Shown here: piece after piece, positions 4,139-12,848 of the stretch
Layout of the letters: every line of letters starts with the position of its first letter
How positions within the stretch are numbered: position 1 is the first letter of the stretch
Assembly: GCA_947457935.1 (NCBI GenBank)
Contig: CANGXP010000015.1
Span: 1 to 40,194 of the forward strand
Source: Alphaproteobacteria bacterium
GTDB taxonomy: Bacteria; Pseudomonadota; Alphaproteobacteria; JAJTHO01; CANGXP01
Direction: 5' to 3'
DNA: 40,194 nt
Translations under genes and position numbers: made by a program
The notes under the pieces: generated by a model
What the model saw: only the letters and a program-made list of their open reading frames with translations
What the model was told of the DNA's origin: nothing
Database searches by the model: none

Positions 4139-6532
4139 TTATTGATTAATCAGATGCGCCGCCATCTCAGCACCGCTCAAGAACGCATCTTCAACACGCC
4201 TCCCCATCAACCAATCACCGCAAACACCAACCCCATCAGCAAAAAGATATGGCTGTCCTAGAGGCTTTTCAACGTAGGCGTTTTTCCAGAGTTTTGCCGC
4301 TGAATACGTTGGTTTTAAGGCTGATGCCTTGAGATTGTTCAAAAACGCCCCCGCAATTTTTTGAATAGCTTGTTCTTCTTTTATATCCATGTTTTCCCGC
4401 GTCCATTGCACATTCCCGTGCAACACCCACGCCTCTCCCCTAGCACGACGCGGCTTATTACTATCCCGAAAAGCATATGTAAACGGACTGTTCGCAACAG
4501 CCATCGCATCATAAGAGGTTGGTAATTTTTGTGCAAAACTGACCATGACAACCCAAACAGACGTAAATTCAAGACATTTTTCCACTTCTGACTGCAAAAT
4601 GTTAGCATCTTTTAGTAGTTGATGACTTAGCGGCGCAGGGAGCGTTAAAATAACACGATCAAAAAAACCATAATCTTTTGCATCATCAAACAAACGCCAG
4701 CCACCTGATACTTTATCAATGCGTGTGATGCTGTGGTGATACGCAATATCTTGTCCCTGTTGTAGAATTTTCGCCAACACATCCATGCTGGGCGCTCCCA
4801 CAAAGGGGTGTTTGCTTAAATTTAACTCCGCTTGTCGATTATCAACATAGATTTGCCCCTTCCAGCGCTCAATCATTCCTTTTTTTCCCCAGTATTCAAG
4901 GAATGTCTTAAAATAGGGATTATTAGCTGTAAAAAAAGGCGTTCCCCCATCAAAAGTTGTTGTTTTATGGGTATGCGTCAAAATACGCCCCCCCGCACTG
5001 CCTGCCTGTTCAAAAATTGTTGCTTTTATCCCTTCACGTTGTAGATGCCACGCGCAACTTAATCCCGTCATGCCTGCACCGATAATCGCAATCCGCCGAT
5101 CATCGCGGATAGAGACTGCAGAGATTTTTTCCAAAATATGCGTGGATGCCTTTAAAATTAACGGAGCTTCCCCGCCTAATTCAGGCGGTGGTTCAACAAT
5201 CGCGCCGAGTGCACACAAAATATTATACGAACAAAGAGGGTCATATGCATCCAGCGCATAACAATCATAATTTTCACGAATGAACGCCACAAGTTTTTCA
5301 CTTGTGTCTGCCCAATTTTTAAGAATAGAGACATATTCCTTAAAAAAGTGCTCAGGAATAAAACCCTGTTCTTGAAGGGTTTTTTGCAGAATATTCCATT
5401 GTTTATTGTTGGTAATCGCGTTGTGACGTTCAAACTCAAGGGGAATACTGTCAGGGGTGCGCCCTTCCTCCATTTTCTTGAGTTCTTTTTTAAAAGATTC
5501 TGCAAAAATCAAACTGTTATCATACAATACATTGTTATAGCAAAATGCGGAGGCATAATCACGTTGCACCAGAAAATATTCTAAAAAATGCCATGCAGCA
5601 TCCGTGCCCTCAATAGTAGAATCAAATAATATTTTAAAGGGCGAAATCATGCCGTAACGCAAATACGGCGCAAGCACTCCATAACAGCTTGATAATCCCC
5701 CTTCTTCTAGATTGGGATAGCTTGCAAAAATTGCTTGTTTTGCTTTTTGCCACAATGCATTCCCTGCCTTAATACCACCTCGACGCGCTTTAACAGGCGC
5801 AATCATCATCCCTGAATCTTCCGTGTTGCGTAAAAAATCTACTTTAACAGTCTGCAGGTCGATAGCAGGCGTTGCTGGATAATGAGGGAGGAACAGCGTT
5901 GCTGGTTTTTTAAAAAAAGATTGCCATGAACGTCCCATCCGCTCGCCACGCAACTGTTTTGTTTCACGCCGAAATTCTTCTCTGTTGGCAAATTTTTTCT
6001 TGAGCAAAGGCAGGGGTATAATACAGGAAGAATCAACCCGCATCAGCGGCGTTGCCGTATTATCTTGCAAACGTGTTGTCACACTCCGTTGATAATTAAT
6101 CGGCACATCATCGGTTACAATCACTGTTGCTTGGCTTGCATATTCTATGAGCAGTTTCAGTTTTTTTTCTAAAGGCAAAAAATAGAATGAATAACTCAGA
6201 TTATTTTTGCTCGCCTCTGCCGCAACATCCTTTGCACCTTCAACAACAAACGTAAAATGTCGTTTGTTCAGATGCGATTGGTCTGACGCTTGTACCTGCA
6301 CAATAATTATGGGTTTCCGCAGCTGTTCCGACAATAAATGACATAAATCCAAGGAAGGATTATCATCCAGACGCATCGCACTATGCATCCAATACAAAAT
6401 ATACTCACCCGTGGGATTCAATACGTCATTCATCCGATACGTTGTGCGCTCTAAAACGTATTCAGGAATATAACGGGCAATTTCACCAATTTTCTGGGAA
6501 CTCATGCAATGCTCTGATGGGTATAAATACAA
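4139..6532 (-). CDS. Fusion of class II photolyase-like and renalase-like FAD oxidoreductase
   Basis: The 797-residue product has two modules. Residues about 44-445 resemble class II CPD photolyases: YWMHSAMRLDDNPSL (47-61) at the start of the antenna domain, then LSSCYGVLAPYLRYGMISP (280-298) and LEYFLVQRDYASAFCYNN (317-334) in the FAD-binding domain. Residues about 480-797 are an NAD(P)/FAD-dependent oxidoreductase of the renalase/amine-oxidase type: dinucleotide motif GAGMTG (485-490), EQAGSAGGR (508-516) and a C-terminal FAD-closing segment GVCGDWLMGRRVEDAFLSGAE (769-789). The canonical class II C-terminal motifs are replaced, so DNA repair is uncertain. The start could be ATG 6532 or ATG 6505; neither has a strong RBS. 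Class II kinship is assigned from memory of the family. Confidence 0.8.
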   Translation of the reverse strand: MYLYPSEHCMSSQKIGEIARYIPEYVLERTTYRMNDVLNPTGEYILYWMHSAMRLDDNPSLDLCHLLSEQLRKPIIIVQVQASDQSHLNKRHFTFVVEGAKDVAAEASKNNLSYSFYFLPLEKKLKLLIEYASQATVIVTDDVPINYQRSVTTRLQDNTATPLMRVDSSCIIPLPLLKKKFANREEFRRETKQLRGERMGRSWQSFFKKPATLFLPHYPATPAIDLQTVKVDFLRNTEDSGMMIAPVKARRGGIKAGNALWQKAKQAIFASYPNLEEGGLSSCYGVLAPYLRYGMISPFKILFDSTIEGTDAAWHFLEYFLVQRDYASAFCYNNVLYDNSLIFAESFKKELKKMEEGRTPDSIPLEFERHNAITNNKQWNILQKTLQEQGFIPEHFFKEYVSILKNWADTSEKLVAFIRENYDCYALDAYDPLCSYNILCALGAIVEPPPELGGEAPLILKASTHILEKISAVSIRDDRRIAIIGAGMTGLSCAWHLQREGIKATIFEQAGSAGGRILTHTHKTTTFDGGTPFFTANNPYFKTFLEYWGKKGMIERWKGQIYVDNRQAELNLSKHPFVGAPSMDVLAKILQQGQDIAYHHSITRIDKVSGGWRLFDDAKDYGFFDRVILTLPAPLSHQLLKDANILQSEVEKCLEFTSVWVVMVSFAQKLPTSYDAMAVANSPFTYAFRDSNKPRRARGEAWVLHGNVQWTRENMDIKEEQAIQKIAGAFLNNLKASALKPTYSAAKLWKNAYVEKPLGQPYLFADGVGVCGDWLMGRRVEDAFLSGAEMAAHLINQ

Positions 6533-6570: not shown

Positions 6571-7119
6571 TTAAGATACCCCTCTACCCTGCAGAGAATA
6601 AAGATGAAGTTGAGCAAGTCTTGCAACAGAACTATCCAGCTCTGTGTCTGTTGACGTTTTTCCCGCAAAACATCTTTCTAAATGTCCCACCAGCCACGTG
6701 TTCTCTTCTTGTGTTAGAGTTTTGGGATCAGCACTATATTTAGCAATAATTGCCAACCCTGCGGCCTCAATTTTTGCGGCTTCCTTCTTTGCATTCTGAT
6801 CAGTTTGGACTCCTTGTTGGATATCGCGCATATAAGAAAAAGGTGCCATAGCCGCGTTCGCAACCTTACGAAGTATAGAGTCTTTATTAAATGGATCAAT
6901 AACTTCTCTAATCGCGTCTTCAACTTTAACGGGCGCAAAGGGACGTCCTCCAATAAATTTGGCAGGATATTCGGTAAGCTTCGCATACAAAAAATCCCCC
7001 CACTCTTTTGATAATGCTAATACTGTATTAGCAACTATCTCAGAGGGGTTCTTTCCTTTTATTTTTTGTTCATTCCTAGTTTTAGTAGGACGCAAAATAA
7101 GTGGTTTGTCATCAGCCAT
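6571..7119 (-). CDS. Hypothetical protein, 182 aa
   Basis: I do not recognise this family. The product is charged and mostly helical by eye, starts MADDKPLILRPTKTRN, has a basic N-terminus, and has a central segment VEDAIREVIDPFNKDSILRKVANAAMAP. There is no signal peptide or membrane helix. A good promoter stands 40 nt upstream. There is no Shine-Dalgarno sequence before the ATG (T-rich leader). It lies 38 nt upstream of the photolyase-like fusion on the same strand, so the two may be co-transcribed. A conserved orphan of this lineage is the most likely status. Confidence 0.6.
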   Translation of the reverse strand: MADDKPLILRPTKTRNEQKIKGKNPSEIVANTVLALSKEWGDFLYAKLTEYPAKFIGGRPFAPVKVEDAIREVIDPFNKDSILRKVANAAMAPFSYMRDIQQGVQTDQNAKKEAAKIEAAGLAIIAKYSADPKTLTQEENTWLVGHLERCFAGKTSTDTELDSSVARLAQLHLYSLQGRGVS

Positions 7120-7654: not shown

Positions 7655-8588
7655 TAACCACATCAGCTATAATAGGGAGATGATCCGACCCCGCACAGTT
7701 GCCAATTTTCTTATCAACAACAGCTATATCTGGCGAGACAAGCACTTGATCAATGGGGATGCGCAAGAATGCTGGCAGATCACACGACCATGAAAAATAA
7801 GGTAGAAGCTGCATCTGCGTATTGCGCAACCCAGAATGCGCAATATAGTCGCGAAACGCGCGTACAAAAGGGGTGGTGTTATGATCTCCCGCTAGTAACA
7901 CAGGCTCTTTTAGGTTTGCTACATAATTTGCAATAATGCCTAAATGCCTATCTCTATCTCGCATCCGCGTTGCGTTTGTAGGCGAAGGTGTGTGCACTCC
8001 AATAAAATTAAAAACGCCCTTATCTCCTTGTAAAACAACGTGTAACAAACGATTTCCCACTTTTGGAAAACGAACAATTTTTGCGCTCACAATCGGAACT
8101 TTTGAGAAAAACAAAAATTGATTCCAGTTTTCGCCCATTTTAGGAAAACGGTATGGGTACTGCTCGTTAATTGCTTTTAACTGATCTTGCAGCGGTGTTG
8201 TTGCCTCAACCATAAACAAAACATCGGGATTGTTGCGTTCAATCTCCGCCTGCACCGCCGCATAGTCCGTATTATAGGCATACACATTAAAGTGCATCAC
8301 GCGTAGCGCATTTTGTTGAGGGGCAACATGCGTTGCCTGATTATCGTATATTTTAACAAAGTCGTATGTATTTAAGGCAACTGCCATCACGGCAATAATA
8401 CTTGCAACACACTTCTTTTGAAGAAGGCATACACACGCGAATATAGCACCAAACAAAACGAGTTGCGTGCGAAATTCTGCAAATAAATCAAACAGAAAAT
8501 ACAGCGGTTGTGCGTAAACACTTACAATTGTTATGCAGCCATACAAAACCGCGAGTACAGACAATAACGAACAGTGTTTTTTTATCAC
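7644..8588 (-). CDS. Membrane-anchored endonuclease/exonuclease/phosphatase-fold protein
   Basis: The 314-residue product has three hydrophobic helices in its first about 80 residues, then an EEP domain: VMHFNVYAYN (metal-site Asn), PDVLFMVEAT (catalytic Glu), GVHTPSP, LLAGDHNTTP (Asp/Asn pair, in place of the common GDFN) and the C-terminal SDHLPI. These are the residues of the Mg-dependent phosphodiesterase fold. The domain order matches a bacterial group with an N-terminal membrane anchor and probably a periplasmic catalytic domain; the substrate is unknown. The start is GTG 8588, with AAGAG 5-6 nt ahead, 9 nt after the stop of the chemoreceptor-like gene, so it is probably in one operon with it. 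Confidence 0.8.
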   Translation of the reverse strand: MIKKHCSLLSVLAVLYGCITIVSVYAQPLYFLFDLFAEFRTQLVLFGAIFACVCLLQKKCVASIIAVMAVALNTYDFVKIYDNQATHVAPQQNALRVMHFNVYAYNTDYAAVQAEIERNNPDVLFMVEATTPLQDQLKAINEQYPYRFPKMGENWNQFLFFSKVPIVSAKIVRFPKVGNRLLHVVLQGDKGVFNFIGVHTPSPTNATRMRDRDRHLGIIANYVANLKEPVLLAGDHNTTPFVRAFRDYIAHSGLRNTQMQLLPYFSWSCDLPAFLRIPIDQVLVSPDIAVVDKKIGNCAGSDHLPIIADVVITR

Positions 8589-8597
8589 AAACAGCTC

Positions 8598-10634
8598 TTA
8601 TGATGCAGAAGGCAACGCTGGCTTAGTTGGGCGTTCAGTCAAAATTTTACGCATGTCCTCCAGCGTTTCTAAGGCTTCTGCCGCAATACTTCTCACTTTA
8701 ATAGAATTATTGCTAGATTGAATAATCTCACCACTAATATCAAGCATGAGAATAGCCAATCGTCCTGCTTGGAACGCAGCATTTTGCACTTGTGAATAAT
8801 GCTCGTGTACATAATCTCTGCACTCTCGCCCCTTAGTTAGTAACGATCCTGCCAGCATGACGTTCTGGCGAATAGAGGCAGAGAGCGTATCTGCCGCTTG
8901 CACGCTTTCTTGCGTCATTTTATGCATCATGGTGATGTCTCGTTCAACCACCATCCCTGCTTCACTGAAATGCTTAGATAAACGGCAAATATCTTCGATC
9001 ATTTTGTTGATAGTTTCTTTGGAATGATCGCGATGATATTCCGCAATTTTTGCATTTTGCGATAAAATCGTGACCTCATCACTCAGGCTTGCAAGGGCGC
9101 GTAGCGTCTCTCCCAAACGAAAAACAGCCATTTGCATGTTGCGCGTGCGAACTTCGTTACGTGCTGAAAATAAATCAAGGTCTGCGGCAAGGGTAGCCTT
9201 GGTTTCAATGGCTGTGCTCATGCCTTCTACTTGGCGCAACAGCTCCTGCATGATGTTGGATGCTTCTGTGACGAATTTGCGTGTTTGATCCGCCAAATCT
9301 GCCCCTTCACTGGCTCTTTCACTCGCGGTGCTGGCATAATCAAAAATCTTTTGCGCAACTTCAGAGAATTCCTCTGTTTTACGATAGGCTTTATTAAGCG
9401 AAGCAATGTATTGCGGGGTAATGGTGGCAAGTGGGGCTTGAACATCTTGTTGTTCTTGTTCCACAACGATGGTTTCAGAAGCATCTCCACCATTCGGCGC
9501 TGCTAATAATTGATTACTTTGCATCCGCTCTAACATGCCATTAATAGCCCGTGCGAGTGCGCCGATTTCATCACGCCGTTCCATCCCTGGTACAGGCATT
9601 CTTTTGCGTGTAATATAGGCATGAGAGGTATAGCTGATAAGCGTTTCAATAGGTTTTTGAAAATGAATATAGGCATGAATAACGGCGTATAACAACCCAA
9701 GCCCTAGAAACAAAAATCCAAAAATTAATAAATAGCGGACAGTTGAAAAAATTTTATCAAATTTACGCCCATCAATTTTGCTTAACGCCTCATGCCACGG
9801 GGTTGCAAGCAAGGGATTAACTTGATTAATCGATTCAACCATGCTGGACGCACTTAGCTCATCAAGAATTTCTTTTAGCTCTTCTTGCTGTCTGCCAATA
9901 ACGTCTACTTCGGTATAAAATGCTGTTAATTTCACGCGTACATCAGCTAATTTTTCTTGAGCAACACGGCTTGTACTGGTGTCAATTTGCGTGATGCCAT
10001 CCTCAATACTCAAAAATGTTTGCCGAGCAGCAGTTGCGGTTGCATCATTGCCCGTTACAATATATTGAGTTGTATATAGCACTCCTTCTTGAAAACGACC
10101 CATAATTTGTGAGAGTGCGTTAGCAGCGTCTTGTTCCTTTACAATCAGCGCATCTCGAATATCAGAAAACTGTGCGATAATTTTTTGCGATTGCGGCAAA
10201 ATTTCTTTATCAGTAATTGCTGCCAATTCTGTAGCAAGATCAGCCGCGTTTTTGATTTTTTCCACAATATCTTGGCGGTTTTTGTCACTTGTTTGAAGTG
10301 ATTTTATCCACTCTGGTTGCGTTGCCCCGGCTGATAAATCAAAACTAAGTGTATCGTACTCTTTATTAATCTCTAAAAACCGTGCGAAAGCATCAGTATT
10401 CTTTGATTTCAGAGCCGTTTCAAGAGATTTTTTCCAGCTATCAACAGTCTTATCAAGACTAAAAGCAGTCACTACATCAATATCGGTAGTGTCGTTTGGT
10501 AGAAAGTGACGAATTTTTTCAGCACGTTCAATATAAAACATGACTAACGATAGGACAATAAGTGGAATAACATACGCGATGAGATAGCTAACGTAAACCG
10601 TGATGCCCAAACTTTTGGTGACAGATCTTTTCAT
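8598..10634 (-). CDS. Chemoreceptor-like transmembrane protein with HAMP domain, degenerate signalling tip
   Basis: The 678-residue product has TM1 (about 10-34), a long helical periplasmic domain (about 35-298), TM2 (about 299-322), a HAMP-like segment (about 323-375, ending RRDEIGALARAINGMLERMQ) and a long cytoplasmic coiled coil. The layout is that of a methyl-accepting chemotaxis protein. At the place of the conserved tip (E-x-x-x-L-A-x-N-A-x-I-E-A-A-R-A-G-E) it reads VTILSQNAKIAEYHRDHSKE (521-540), keeping only the N-A-x-I core. CheA/CheW coupling is therefore doubtful. No che genes are nearby. It may act as a membrane sensor or scaffold of another kind. A short membrane protein precedes it and an EEP protein follows it on the same strand. 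Confidence 0.75.
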   Translation of the reverse strand: MKRSVTKSLGITVYVSYLIAYVIPLIVLSLVMFYIERAEKIRHFLPNDTTDIDVVTAFSLDKTVDSWKKSLETALKSKNTDAFARFLEINKEYDTLSFDLSAGATQPEWIKSLQTSDKNRQDIVEKIKNAADLATELAAITDKEILPQSQKIIAQFSDIRDALIVKEQDAANALSQIMGRFQEGVLYTTQYIVTGNDATATAARQTFLSIEDGITQIDTSTSRVAQEKLADVRVKLTAFYTEVDVIGRQQEELKEILDELSASSMVESINQVNPLLATPWHEALSKIDGRKFDKIFSTVRYLLIFGFLFLGLGLLYAVIHAYIHFQKPIETLISYTSHAYITRKRMPVPGMERRDEIGALARAINGMLERMQSNQLLAAPNGGDASETIVVEQEQQDVQAPLATITPQYIASLNKAYRKTEEFSEVAQKIFDYASTASERASEGADLADQTRKFVTEASNIMQELLRQVEGMSTAIETKATLAADLDLFSARNEVRTRNMQMAVFRLGETLRALASLSDEVTILSQNAKIAEYHRDHSKETINKMIEDICRLSKHFSEAGMVVERDITMMHKMTQESVQAADTLSASIRQNVMLAGSLLTKGRECRDYVHEHYSQVQNAAFQAGRLAILMLDISGEIIQSSNNSIKVRSIAAEALETLEDMRKILTERPTKPALPSAS

Positions 10635-11030: not shown

Positions 11031-12848
11031 ATGTCTCGCCGTAATATCGCCATCATCGCCCACGTTGACCATGGTAAAACCACTCTTGTGGATGCCTTAT
11101 TGAAGCAAAGCGGCACGTTCCGTGAAAACCAAAACGTGGCAGTACGCGCCATGGATAGCAACGATTTAGAAAAAGAGCGCGGCATTACCATTCTGGCGAA
11201 ATGTACCTCTGTGGTATGGGAAGACACCCGTATTAATATTATTGACACCCCGGGGCACGCCGATTTTGGTGGCGAGGTTGAGCGCATTTTAAGTATGGTA
11301 GACGGTGTTGTGTTACTTGTGGATGCCGCAGAAGGCCCGCTCCCGCAAACAAAATTCGTGGTCGGCAAAGCATTGCAGTTGGGCTTAAAGCCGATTGTGG
11401 TGGTGAATAAAATTGACCGTCCCGATGCCCGCATTGAAGAAGTGCACGAAGAAGTGTTTGATTTGTTTATCGCGATGGAAGCATCTGACGAACAGCTTGA
11501 TTTCCCCACGCTCTATGCGTCTGGGCGTGAAGGTTGGGCATTGAAAGACCTCAATGATGAGAAAAAAGACCTCAAACCCTTGTTTGATCTGATTGTCAAC
11601 CATGTTCCAGAGCCTAAGGGTGACAAAACCCAACCTGCTGCCATGCTGGCAACCCTTTTGGAGATTGACCCCTACTTAGGGCGCGTGCTCACAGGCAAAA
11701 TTATCTCTGGGACGATTAAGCAAAACATGCCTGTTAAGGTATTAGATTTAAACAGCAATTTCATTGAGCAAGGGCGTATCAGCAAAGTACTGACATTCCA
11801 TGGTCTGCAACGCATTCCCGCTGAAGAGGCCTATGCAGGGGATATTGTGGCAGTAGCGGGCTTAAGCAAAGCAACCGTTGCCTATACGATTTGTGCACCT
11901 GAAGTTGAAACGGCTTTGAAAGCCATCCCCATTGACCCCCCCACCTTGGCAATGACCTTCTCTGTGAACAACTCACCCTTGGCTGGAACAGAAGGTGATA
12001 AAGTGACCTCCCGGCAGATTGCCGCCCGTTTGCTCGCGGAAGCCGAGGCGAATGTTGCGATTCAAGTACGCGAAACAGAAGACAAAGACGCACTAGAAGT
12101 TGCAGGACGCGGCGAATTACAACTCGGTGTTCTCATTGAAACCATGCGTCGTGAAGGCTTTGAATTGTCCATCAGCCGCCCACGCGTGCTGTTTCAAACC
12201 GATGAAAACGGGCAAAAACTAGAGCCTTTTGAAGAAGTTATCGTTGATGTGGATGAAGTTTACAGCGGCGCGGTGATGGAATTCCTGTCACTCCGTAAAG
12301 CAGAATTGCAAGACATGCGCAGCAGTGGCGCGGGCAAAAGCCGTCTTGCCTTCATCATGCCGTCACGCGGACTCATTGGTCTGCATAGCGAATTCCTTAC
12401 CATTACCCGTGGTACAGGCCTCATGAACCGCTTGTTCCATGGCTATATGCCCTATAAAGGCAACTTGGCAGGGCGGCGCAACGGCGTGCTGATTTCGACA
12501 GACGCAGGGGAAGCGCAAGCCTACTCCCTCTTTAACATTGAAGAGCGCGGTATTTTGTTCATTCCGCCGCTTGCTAAAGTGTATCAAGGGATGATTATTG
12601 GCGAACATAGCCGTGATAATGATCTTGAAGTCAACCCGCTGAAAGCAAAGCAGCTTACCAACATTCGTGCTTCAGGTAAAGACGAGGCGATTCGCTTAAC
12701 ACCACCGAAAATCCTCACGCTTGAGCAAGCGATTGCCTATATTGAGGAAGACGAGTTGGTAGAAGTAACGCCTGCGTGCATTCGTCTCCGCAAGCGTCAT
12801 CTTGATCCGAATGAGCGTAAACGGGCGACAAAAACAAAATCTGACTAA
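11031..12848 (+). CDS. typA: Translational GTPase TypA/BipA
   Basis: This ribosome-associated GTPase has roles in stress response and large-subunit assembly. The 605 residues begin MSRRNIAIIAHVDHGKTTLVDALL (P-loop AHVDHGKT), followed by EKERGITI (switch I), DTPGHADFGGEVER (G3) and NKIDRP (G4), then EF-G-like domains and the BipA-specific C-terminus. ATG 11031 is chosen because AGGAA lies 10 nt upstream and the protein then starts exactly at the conserved N-terminus; an in-frame ATG at 10965 would add 22 unconserved residues. It is monocistronic, divergent from the small membrane protein. Confidence 0.97.
   Translation: MSRRNIAIIAHVDHGKTTLVDALLKQSGTFRENQNVAVRAMDSNDLEKERGITILAKCTSVVWEDTRINIIDTPGHADFGGEVERILSMVDGVVLLVDAAEGPLPQTKFVVGKALQLGLKPIVVVNKIDRPDARIEEVHEEVFDLFIAMEASDEQLDFPTLYASGREGWALKDLNDEKKDLKPLFDLIVNHVPEPKGDKTQPAAMLATLLEIDPYLGRVLTGKIISGTIKQNMPVKVLDLNSNFIEQGRISKVLTFHGLQRIPAEEAYAGDIVAVAGLSKATVAYTICAPEVETALKAIPIDPPTLAMTFSVNNSPLAGTEGDKVTSRQIAARLLAEAEANVAIQVRETEDKDALEVAGRGELQLGVLIETMRREGFELSISRPRVLFQTDENGQKLEPFEEVIVDVDEVYSGAVMEFLSLRKAELQDMRSSGAGKSRLAFIMPSRGLIGLHSEFLTITRGTGLMNRLFHGYMPYKGNLAGRRNGVLISTDAGEAQAYSLFNIEERGILFIPPLAKVYQGMIIGEHSRDNDLEVNPLKAKQLTNIRASGKDEAIRLTPPKILTLEQAIAYIEEDELVEVTPACIRLRKRHLDPNERKRATKTKSD

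What the first reader, a model, noticed from the sequence alone, without database searches (positions are those of the whole stretch)
4139..6532. Fusion of a photolyase-like domain with a renalase-like oxidoreductase
One 797-residue frame joins two flavin-binding modules: a class II photolyase-like region and an NAD(P)H/FAD oxidoreductase with GxGxxG. In photolyases the flavin must be reduced to act; a fused NAD(P)H-dependent flavoprotein could supply electrons, or both could form a light-dependent redox sensor. The joint (about residues 445-480) is clean, with no frameshift.
Basis: partly seen in the sequence, partly recalled or inferred. Interest (0 to 1): 0.7.

Follow-up and report, generated by a model that had tools for sequence, protein, structure and literature searches.

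The report
Renalase fused to a degenerate photolyase
The protein really is a DNA-photolyase-like half joined to a renalase-like flavin enzyme, part of a rare and apparently undescribed family found in several bacterial phyla, but in this bacterium's order the photolyase half has lost the residues needed to hold its flavin and grip damaged DNA, so it is probably a repurposed scaffold rather than a light-driven repair enzyme.

Summary
The frame at 4139-6532 (minus strand) encodes a class II photolyase-like module (residues about 37-446) followed by a renalase-like FAD oxidoreductase (about 479-797). It is not an assembly artefact: the same order of domains occurs in eight further genomes (Alphaproteobacteria, Planctomycetota, Myxococcota, Gemmatimonadota; one is cut by a scaffold gap), and all nine photolyase modules form one clade (100/100 support). 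The fusion is rare: 3 of 385 genomes of the class.

The fusions outside its order keep the class II residues. The window protein and its relative from another family of the order do not: N403 is Tyr in both, R378 is Phe in both, and E301, W421, M379 and the Ser of the LSPYL motif are lost. N403A and N403L are reported to impair FAD binding. The photolyase module has become the fast-evolving half (25% identity within the order, against 50-57% among intact fusions from different phyla), while the renalase half keeps 28 of 33 conserved positions. The genome has a separate class I photolyase.

Most likely this is a renalase-type oxidase carrying a retained but non-photocatalytic photolyase fold. 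In the intact relatives, coupling of the two flavins remains possible.

The parts
4139..6532 (-). Whole gene: degenerate class II photolyase-like module fused to a renalase-like FAD oxidoreductase; likely ATG start at 6505
5195..6424 (-). Class II photolyase-like module, residues about 37-446; fold retained, 35 of 75 positions conserved in class II photolyases kept
5342..5344 (-). Codon 397 (Phe) where class II photolyases have Arg (M. mazei R378); Phe also in the relative L032
5267..5269 (-). Codon 422 (Tyr) where class II photolyases have the FAD-binding Asn (M. mazei N403); Tyr also in the relative L032
   Evidence: effect of N403A/N403L from PMC9649867
5213..5215 (-). Codon 440 (Cys) where class II photolyases have lesion-binding Trp (M. 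mazei W421); Gln in L032
5105..5188 (-). Interdomain linker predicted disordered (model residues 440-467 = residues 449-476 of the 797-aa numbering, pLDDT below 50)
4142..5098 (-). Renalase-like FAD module, residues about 479-797: GxGxxG at 485-490, GGR at 514-516, C-terminal GDW motif at 772-774; keeps 28 of 33 positions conserved in standalone relatives

Best explanation
The gene encodes a member of a rare fusion family in which a class II photolyase module precedes a bacterial-renalase-type FAD oxidase. SHOWN: in most of the sampled family the photolyase module keeps the class II residues, but in the alphaproteobacterial order of the window it has lost FAD-anchoring and lesion-binding residues, evolves much faster than the renalase half, and is still kept open and full-length in two families of the order. 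INFERRED: here the working catalyst is the renalase half, probably oxidising wrongly reduced (isomeric) NAD(P)H or a related reduced nicotinamide, with O2 as electron acceptor. The photolyase half no longer does photorepair and survives as a structural or ligand/partner-binding domain, a 'pseudo-photolyase'. Photorepair in this cell is done by the separate class I photolyase. INFERRED for the intact relatives: two light-stress or damage-repair activities, on DNA and on the nicotinamide cofactor, held in one rigid protein, with the renalase flavin possibly helping to reduce the photolyase flavin.
For: Key positions in 74 standalone class II photolyases against the window / L032: R378 74/74 R, here F/F; N403 73/74 N, here Y/Y; W421 73/74 W, here C/Q; M379 74/74 M, here K/S; E301 E or Q, here Y/N; Ser of LSPYL 71/74 S, here A/Q (pairwise alignments to M. 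mazei agree). The other seven fusions keep R378, M379, W381, W388, W421 and E301, and six of seven keep N403. Retention of conserved columns: photolyase 35/75 (window), 43/75 (L032), 63-68/75 (others); renalase 28/33 and 30/33. Class II model score 110 and 148 bits against 333-337 for two intact fusions. Photolyase end branches 2.72 and 2.11 against a median of 0.45; renalase 0.98 and 0.83 against 0.56. Identity window-L032: 25% photolyase, 34.5% renalase; intact fusions across phyla 50-57% and 29-47%; class I photolyases of the same two genomes 50.4%. The half keeps about 400 residues with no stop in either lineage (28 and 20 stops expected in base-shuffled DNA), and the model keeps the class II fold. 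A separate class I photolyase and a separate standalone renalase are in the genome. N403A and N403L impair FAD binding, per Kiontke 2011 as cited in PMC9649867; W381F blocks photoreduction (PMC5885780); here W381 is Tyr.
Against: Only two degenerate sequences are known, and both sit on long branches where alignment is harder. D409, D412, W360 and W388 are retained in the window, and L032 keeps the whole Trp triad and W305, so binding of FAD in an altered way is not excluded. The renalase substrate is inferred from homology at about 30% identity. The low pTM of the window model may reflect sequence divergence rather than real flexibility. An open frame alone does not show that the photolyase half has a function, because a break would also remove the renalase half.
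Confidence: 0.6

Rival explanations
1. One reading: both flavin sites work, and the renalase half reduces the photolyase flavin (or the pair is a light-dependent redox sensor).
For: Fusion of two flavoprotein families. Intact relatives keep the catalytic residues, one is modelled as a rigid unit (pTM 0.92), and some lie beside repair genes: class I photolyase next to L033, class II photolyase overlapping the fusion in L037, formamidopyrimidine-DNA glycosylase next to L034.
Against: For the window: N403Y, R378F, W381Y and loss of E301, W305 and W421. Renalases are reported to oxidise isomeric NAD(P)H (Hoag 2015, title cited in PMC7660482), which does not favour ordinary NAD(P)H as the electron source. 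No distance between the flavin sites was measured.
Confidence: 0.12
2. The photolyase half is simply decaying; only the renalase half is needed, and the N-terminal half is a passenger kept open only because the C-terminal half is translated from it.
For: Very long branches and loss of 40 of 75 conserved positions. An intact class I photolyase makes it redundant. A frameshift or stop upstream would remove the renalase half, so an open frame alone is weak evidence of function.
Against: Full length with the fold retained. Two lineages from different families share the same new residues at former catalytic positions (F at 378, Y at 403). In-frame deletions would be tolerated by a passenger, yet the half keeps about 400 residues.
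Confidence: 0.2
3. The photolyase module keeps a changed FAD or antenna pocket and acts as a cryptochrome-like light sensor controlling the renalase half.
For: The N-terminal antenna-domain fold is well predicted (pLDDT about 90); L032 keeps the Trp triad; a Tyr replaces N403 in both proteins.
Against: The window has lost W381; R378 and the LSPYL Ser are lost in both proteins; no known cryptochrome with Tyr at this position was found or tested here.
Confidence: 0.07
4. Assembly error joining two neighbouring genes.
For: None found.
Against: The same fusion occurs in independently assembled genomes of four phyla, and the photolyase modules form one clade.
Confidence: 0.01

Closest known systems
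Class II CPD photolyase (Methanosarcina mazei MmCPDII, PDB 2xry; NCBIfam TIGR00591)
   Same: Fold and domain order of the N-terminal half; W360, W388, D409 and D412 retained
   Different: N403Y, R378F, W381Y, E301Y, W305Q, W421C; scores 110 bits against a cut-off of 550; fused C-terminal oxidoreductase
Bacterial renalase (Pseudomonas syringae, PDB 3kkj, 4zcc)
   Same: Whole C-terminal module, 30% identity, target TM 0.90, conserved GxGxxG, GGR and GDW motifs
   Different: N-terminal photolyase-like half; substrate untested
Intact photolyase-renalase fusions (L033-L037, L113)
   Same: Same order of domains; photolyase modules form one clade with the window
   Different: Class II photolyase residues kept, several beside DNA-repair genes, L033 modelled as a rigid two-domain unit
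Vertebrate-type cryptochromes with weakened FAD use (from general knowledge)
   Same: Precedent for a photolyase fold kept for a function other than photorepair
   Different: Eukaryotic clock proteins, other photolyase class, no oxidoreductase fusion

Membership tests
Class II CPD photolyase | Overall fold (antenna domain plus helical FAD domain) | tested here: met
   Foldseek to MmCPDII structures, target TM about 0.79, E 1e-21
Class II CPD photolyase | Score over the curated cut-off of TIGR00591 | tested here: not met
   110 bits against 550; intact fusions at 333-337 also fall below, so this feature alone is not decisive
Class II CPD photolyase | FAD-binding N403 and conserved R378 | tested here: not met
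   Tyr and Phe
Class II CPD photolyase | Lesion-binding E301, W305, W421 | tested here: not met
   Tyr, Gln, Cys
Class II CPD photolyase | Trp triad W381-W360-W388 | tested here: not met
   Y-W-W in the window; W-W-W in L032
Class II CPD photolyase | Light-driven CPD repair | not testable with these tools
   Needs protein and UV-damaged DNA
Bacterial renalase | Fold and FAD-binding motifs | tested here: met
   E 9e-43 to 3kkj; target TM 0.90 to 4zcc; 28 of 33 conserved columns
Bacterial renalase | Oxidation of 2- or 6-dihydro-NAD(P) | not testable with these tools
   Enzyme assay needed
Photolyase-renalase fusion family | Single origin of the fusion | tested here: inconclusive
   Photolyase modules one clade, 100/100; renalase modules unresolved, one clade not rejected, p-AU 0.48

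The most novel reading that the evidence does not exclude
A bacterial class II photolyase fold has been converted into a non-photocatalytic domain that serves a fused renalase (scaffold, nucleotide or DNA tether, or regulator), descending from an ancestral bifunctional enzyme that joined light-driven DNA repair to repair of the reduced nicotinamide cofactor.
Probability: 0.45. Interest if true: 0.65.

Novelty: new variant of a known kind. Interest (0 to 1): 0.5.

Why it matters
No paper in the searched open-access library mentions both photolyase and renalase, so the fusion family appears undescribed there. It makes one question directly testable: does a fused NAD(P)-handling flavoenzyme feed electrons to a photolyase in the intact members? 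It also offers a bacterial case of a photolyase half losing its flavin and lesion residues while its fused partner stays conserved. For annotation, naming the window protein a DNA photolyase would be misleading.

Tried and rejected
Assembly artefact: rejected by independent fusions. A first scan of named genomes with the window protein alone found nothing; the two-sequence alignment found the family. Viral contigs: none (limited by its patterns). Plasmids: no record holds both halves. A conserved gene neighbourhood in the window: the upstream gene (6571-7119) has no relative in the four genomes held for the order and no Pfam match. The photolyase plus amine-oxidase neighbours in L038 and L055 contain a different, longer amine oxidase that only weakly resembles renalase, so they are not counted as unfused versions. 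Alphaproteobacterial standalone photolyases as closest relatives of the fusion: rejected, they fall in a distant clade. Net-charge comparison for DNA binding was uninformative.

Full report
OBSERVATION. The minus-strand frame 4139-6532 is open over 797 codons. The relative in G001 shows that the true start is probably the ATG at 6505: its N-terminus (MSKDEKPNLANLSRVGELIRSLPDALEDR...) aligns with MSSQKIGEIARYIPEYVLER of the window. NCBIfam phr2 matches 42-442, Pfam DNA_photolyase 46-174 lies just under its cut-off, and Amino_oxidase and NAD_binding_8 match from 483 on. Against the PDB, residues 481-795 match P. syringae renalase (E 9e-43) and two N-terminal stretches match M. mazei class II photolyase. 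The model (mean pLDDT 85) finds both folds in Foldseek.

HOW COMMON. A relative in another family of the same order (G001 = L003/L032, 773 aa) has the same architecture at about 29% identity. An alignment-based scan of named genomes gave fusions in Planctomycetota (L033, L036, L037), Myxococcota (L034, L035) and a Gemmatimonadota genome (L082, cut by an N gap just after the GxGxxG). A further alphaproteobacterium (G247 = L113) was found in the class search, where 3 of 385 genomes carry the fusion. In a separate sample of 398 genomes of the phylum only the window genome did. The fusion is therefore real, old or horizontally spread, and rare.

ONE FAMILY. All nine fused photolyase modules form one side of a branch with 100/100 support in the careful tree, and 99 when either long-branch member is left out. 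The renalase tree is poorly resolved; holding the eight fused renalase modules together is not rejected (p-AU 0.48). A single fusion is the simplest reading but is not proven.

THE PHOTOLYASE HALF IS DEGENERATE IN THIS ORDER. Using M. mazei numbering, mapped through the alignments, the window / L032 residues are: E301 Y/N, W305 Q/W, R378 F/F, M379 K/S, W381 Y/W, N403 Y/Y, W421 C/Q, Ser of LSPYL A/Q. The 74 standalone class II photolyases are nearly invariant at R378, M379, W381, N403 and W421, and the other seven fusions keep these (one has Ser at 403). N403A and N403L impair FAD binding according to work cited in PMC9649867, and W381F blocks flavin photoreduction (PMC5885780). The lesion-binding roles of E301, W305 and W421 are from my knowledge of the MmCPDII structures. 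Of 75 columns conserved in at least 90% of standalone enzymes, the window keeps 35, L032 43, the other fusions 63-68. In the renalase half the window keeps 28 of 33, L032 30 of 33.

RATES. Photolyase identity between window and L032 is 25%, though intact fusions from different phyla share 50-57% and the class I photolyases of the same two genomes share 50.4%. Renalase identities are 34.5% and 29-47%. Photolyase end branches are 2.72 and 2.11 against a median of 0.45; renalase end branches are 0.98 and 0.83 against 0.56. The change is thus specific to the photolyase half. It does not look like plain decay: both lineages keep about 400 residues of it, share the same new residues at the positions of R378 and N403 and at window residues 292, 326 and 395, and the fold is still predicted. 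However, an open frame by itself is weak evidence, since a break would also remove the renalase half.

STRUCTURE. With the same 30 sequences as alignment, the intact fusion L033 is modelled with pTM 0.92 and an ordered linker. Foldseek gives its photolyase half a target TM of 0.85-0.92 to M. mazei photolyase and its renalase half about 0.92 to 4zcc/4zcd. The window protein gives pTM 0.60 and a linker below pLDDT 50. So a fixed arrangement of the two flavin modules is predicted for the intact protein and not for the window protein; divergence of the query may contribute to this difference.

SURROUNDINGS. The window gene lies between a convergent TPR lipoprotein gene and an orphan gene without relatives in the order. 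In L033 the fusion is divergent from a class I photolyase gene followed by a short-chain dehydrogenase gene; in L034 it follows a formamidopyrimidine-DNA glycosylase gene; in L037 its start overlaps the end of a canonical class II photolyase gene. This supports a light-damage role for the intact members. In G001 the neighbours are exonuclease III and, on the overlapping contig end, a divergent glutathione peroxidase gene. The names of these last two genes are my reading of the sequences, not a tool result. The window genome has its own class I photolyase (C33) and standalone renalase (C26).

CONCLUSION. For this particular protein the best-supported reading is a renalase-type oxidase with a repurposed, probably flavin-free photolyase fold. 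Coupling of two flavins is a live hypothesis only for the intact relatives.

Noticed in passing
L037:6554-8041 and 8034-10370: A canonical class II photolyase gene overlaps by 8 bases the start of the intact photolyase-renalase fusion gene, suggesting a two-gene repair operon.
   Followed up: partly
L033:5767-7860: A 697-aa class I photolyase with an extension of about 180 residues before the photolyase domain, divergent to the intact fusion.
   Followed up: no
L082:9449-9548: The fusion is cut by an N gap, and the DNA after the gap reads as genes on the other strand (a glycine cleavage H-protein domain at 11500-12693), so the scaffold join may be wrong.
   Followed up: partly
window 6571-7119: Orphan 182-aa gene, same strand as and just upstream of the fusion, no Pfam match and no relative in the four genomes held for the order.
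   Followed up: partly
window 8598-10634: 678-aa protein with a weak HAMP domain and no other Pfam match.
   Followed up: no
L035 renalase module: The fused renalase module of this Polyangiaceae genome keeps only 23 of 33 conserved positions, and its photolyase module has Ser at N403: possibly the renalase half is the diverging one there.
   Followed up: no
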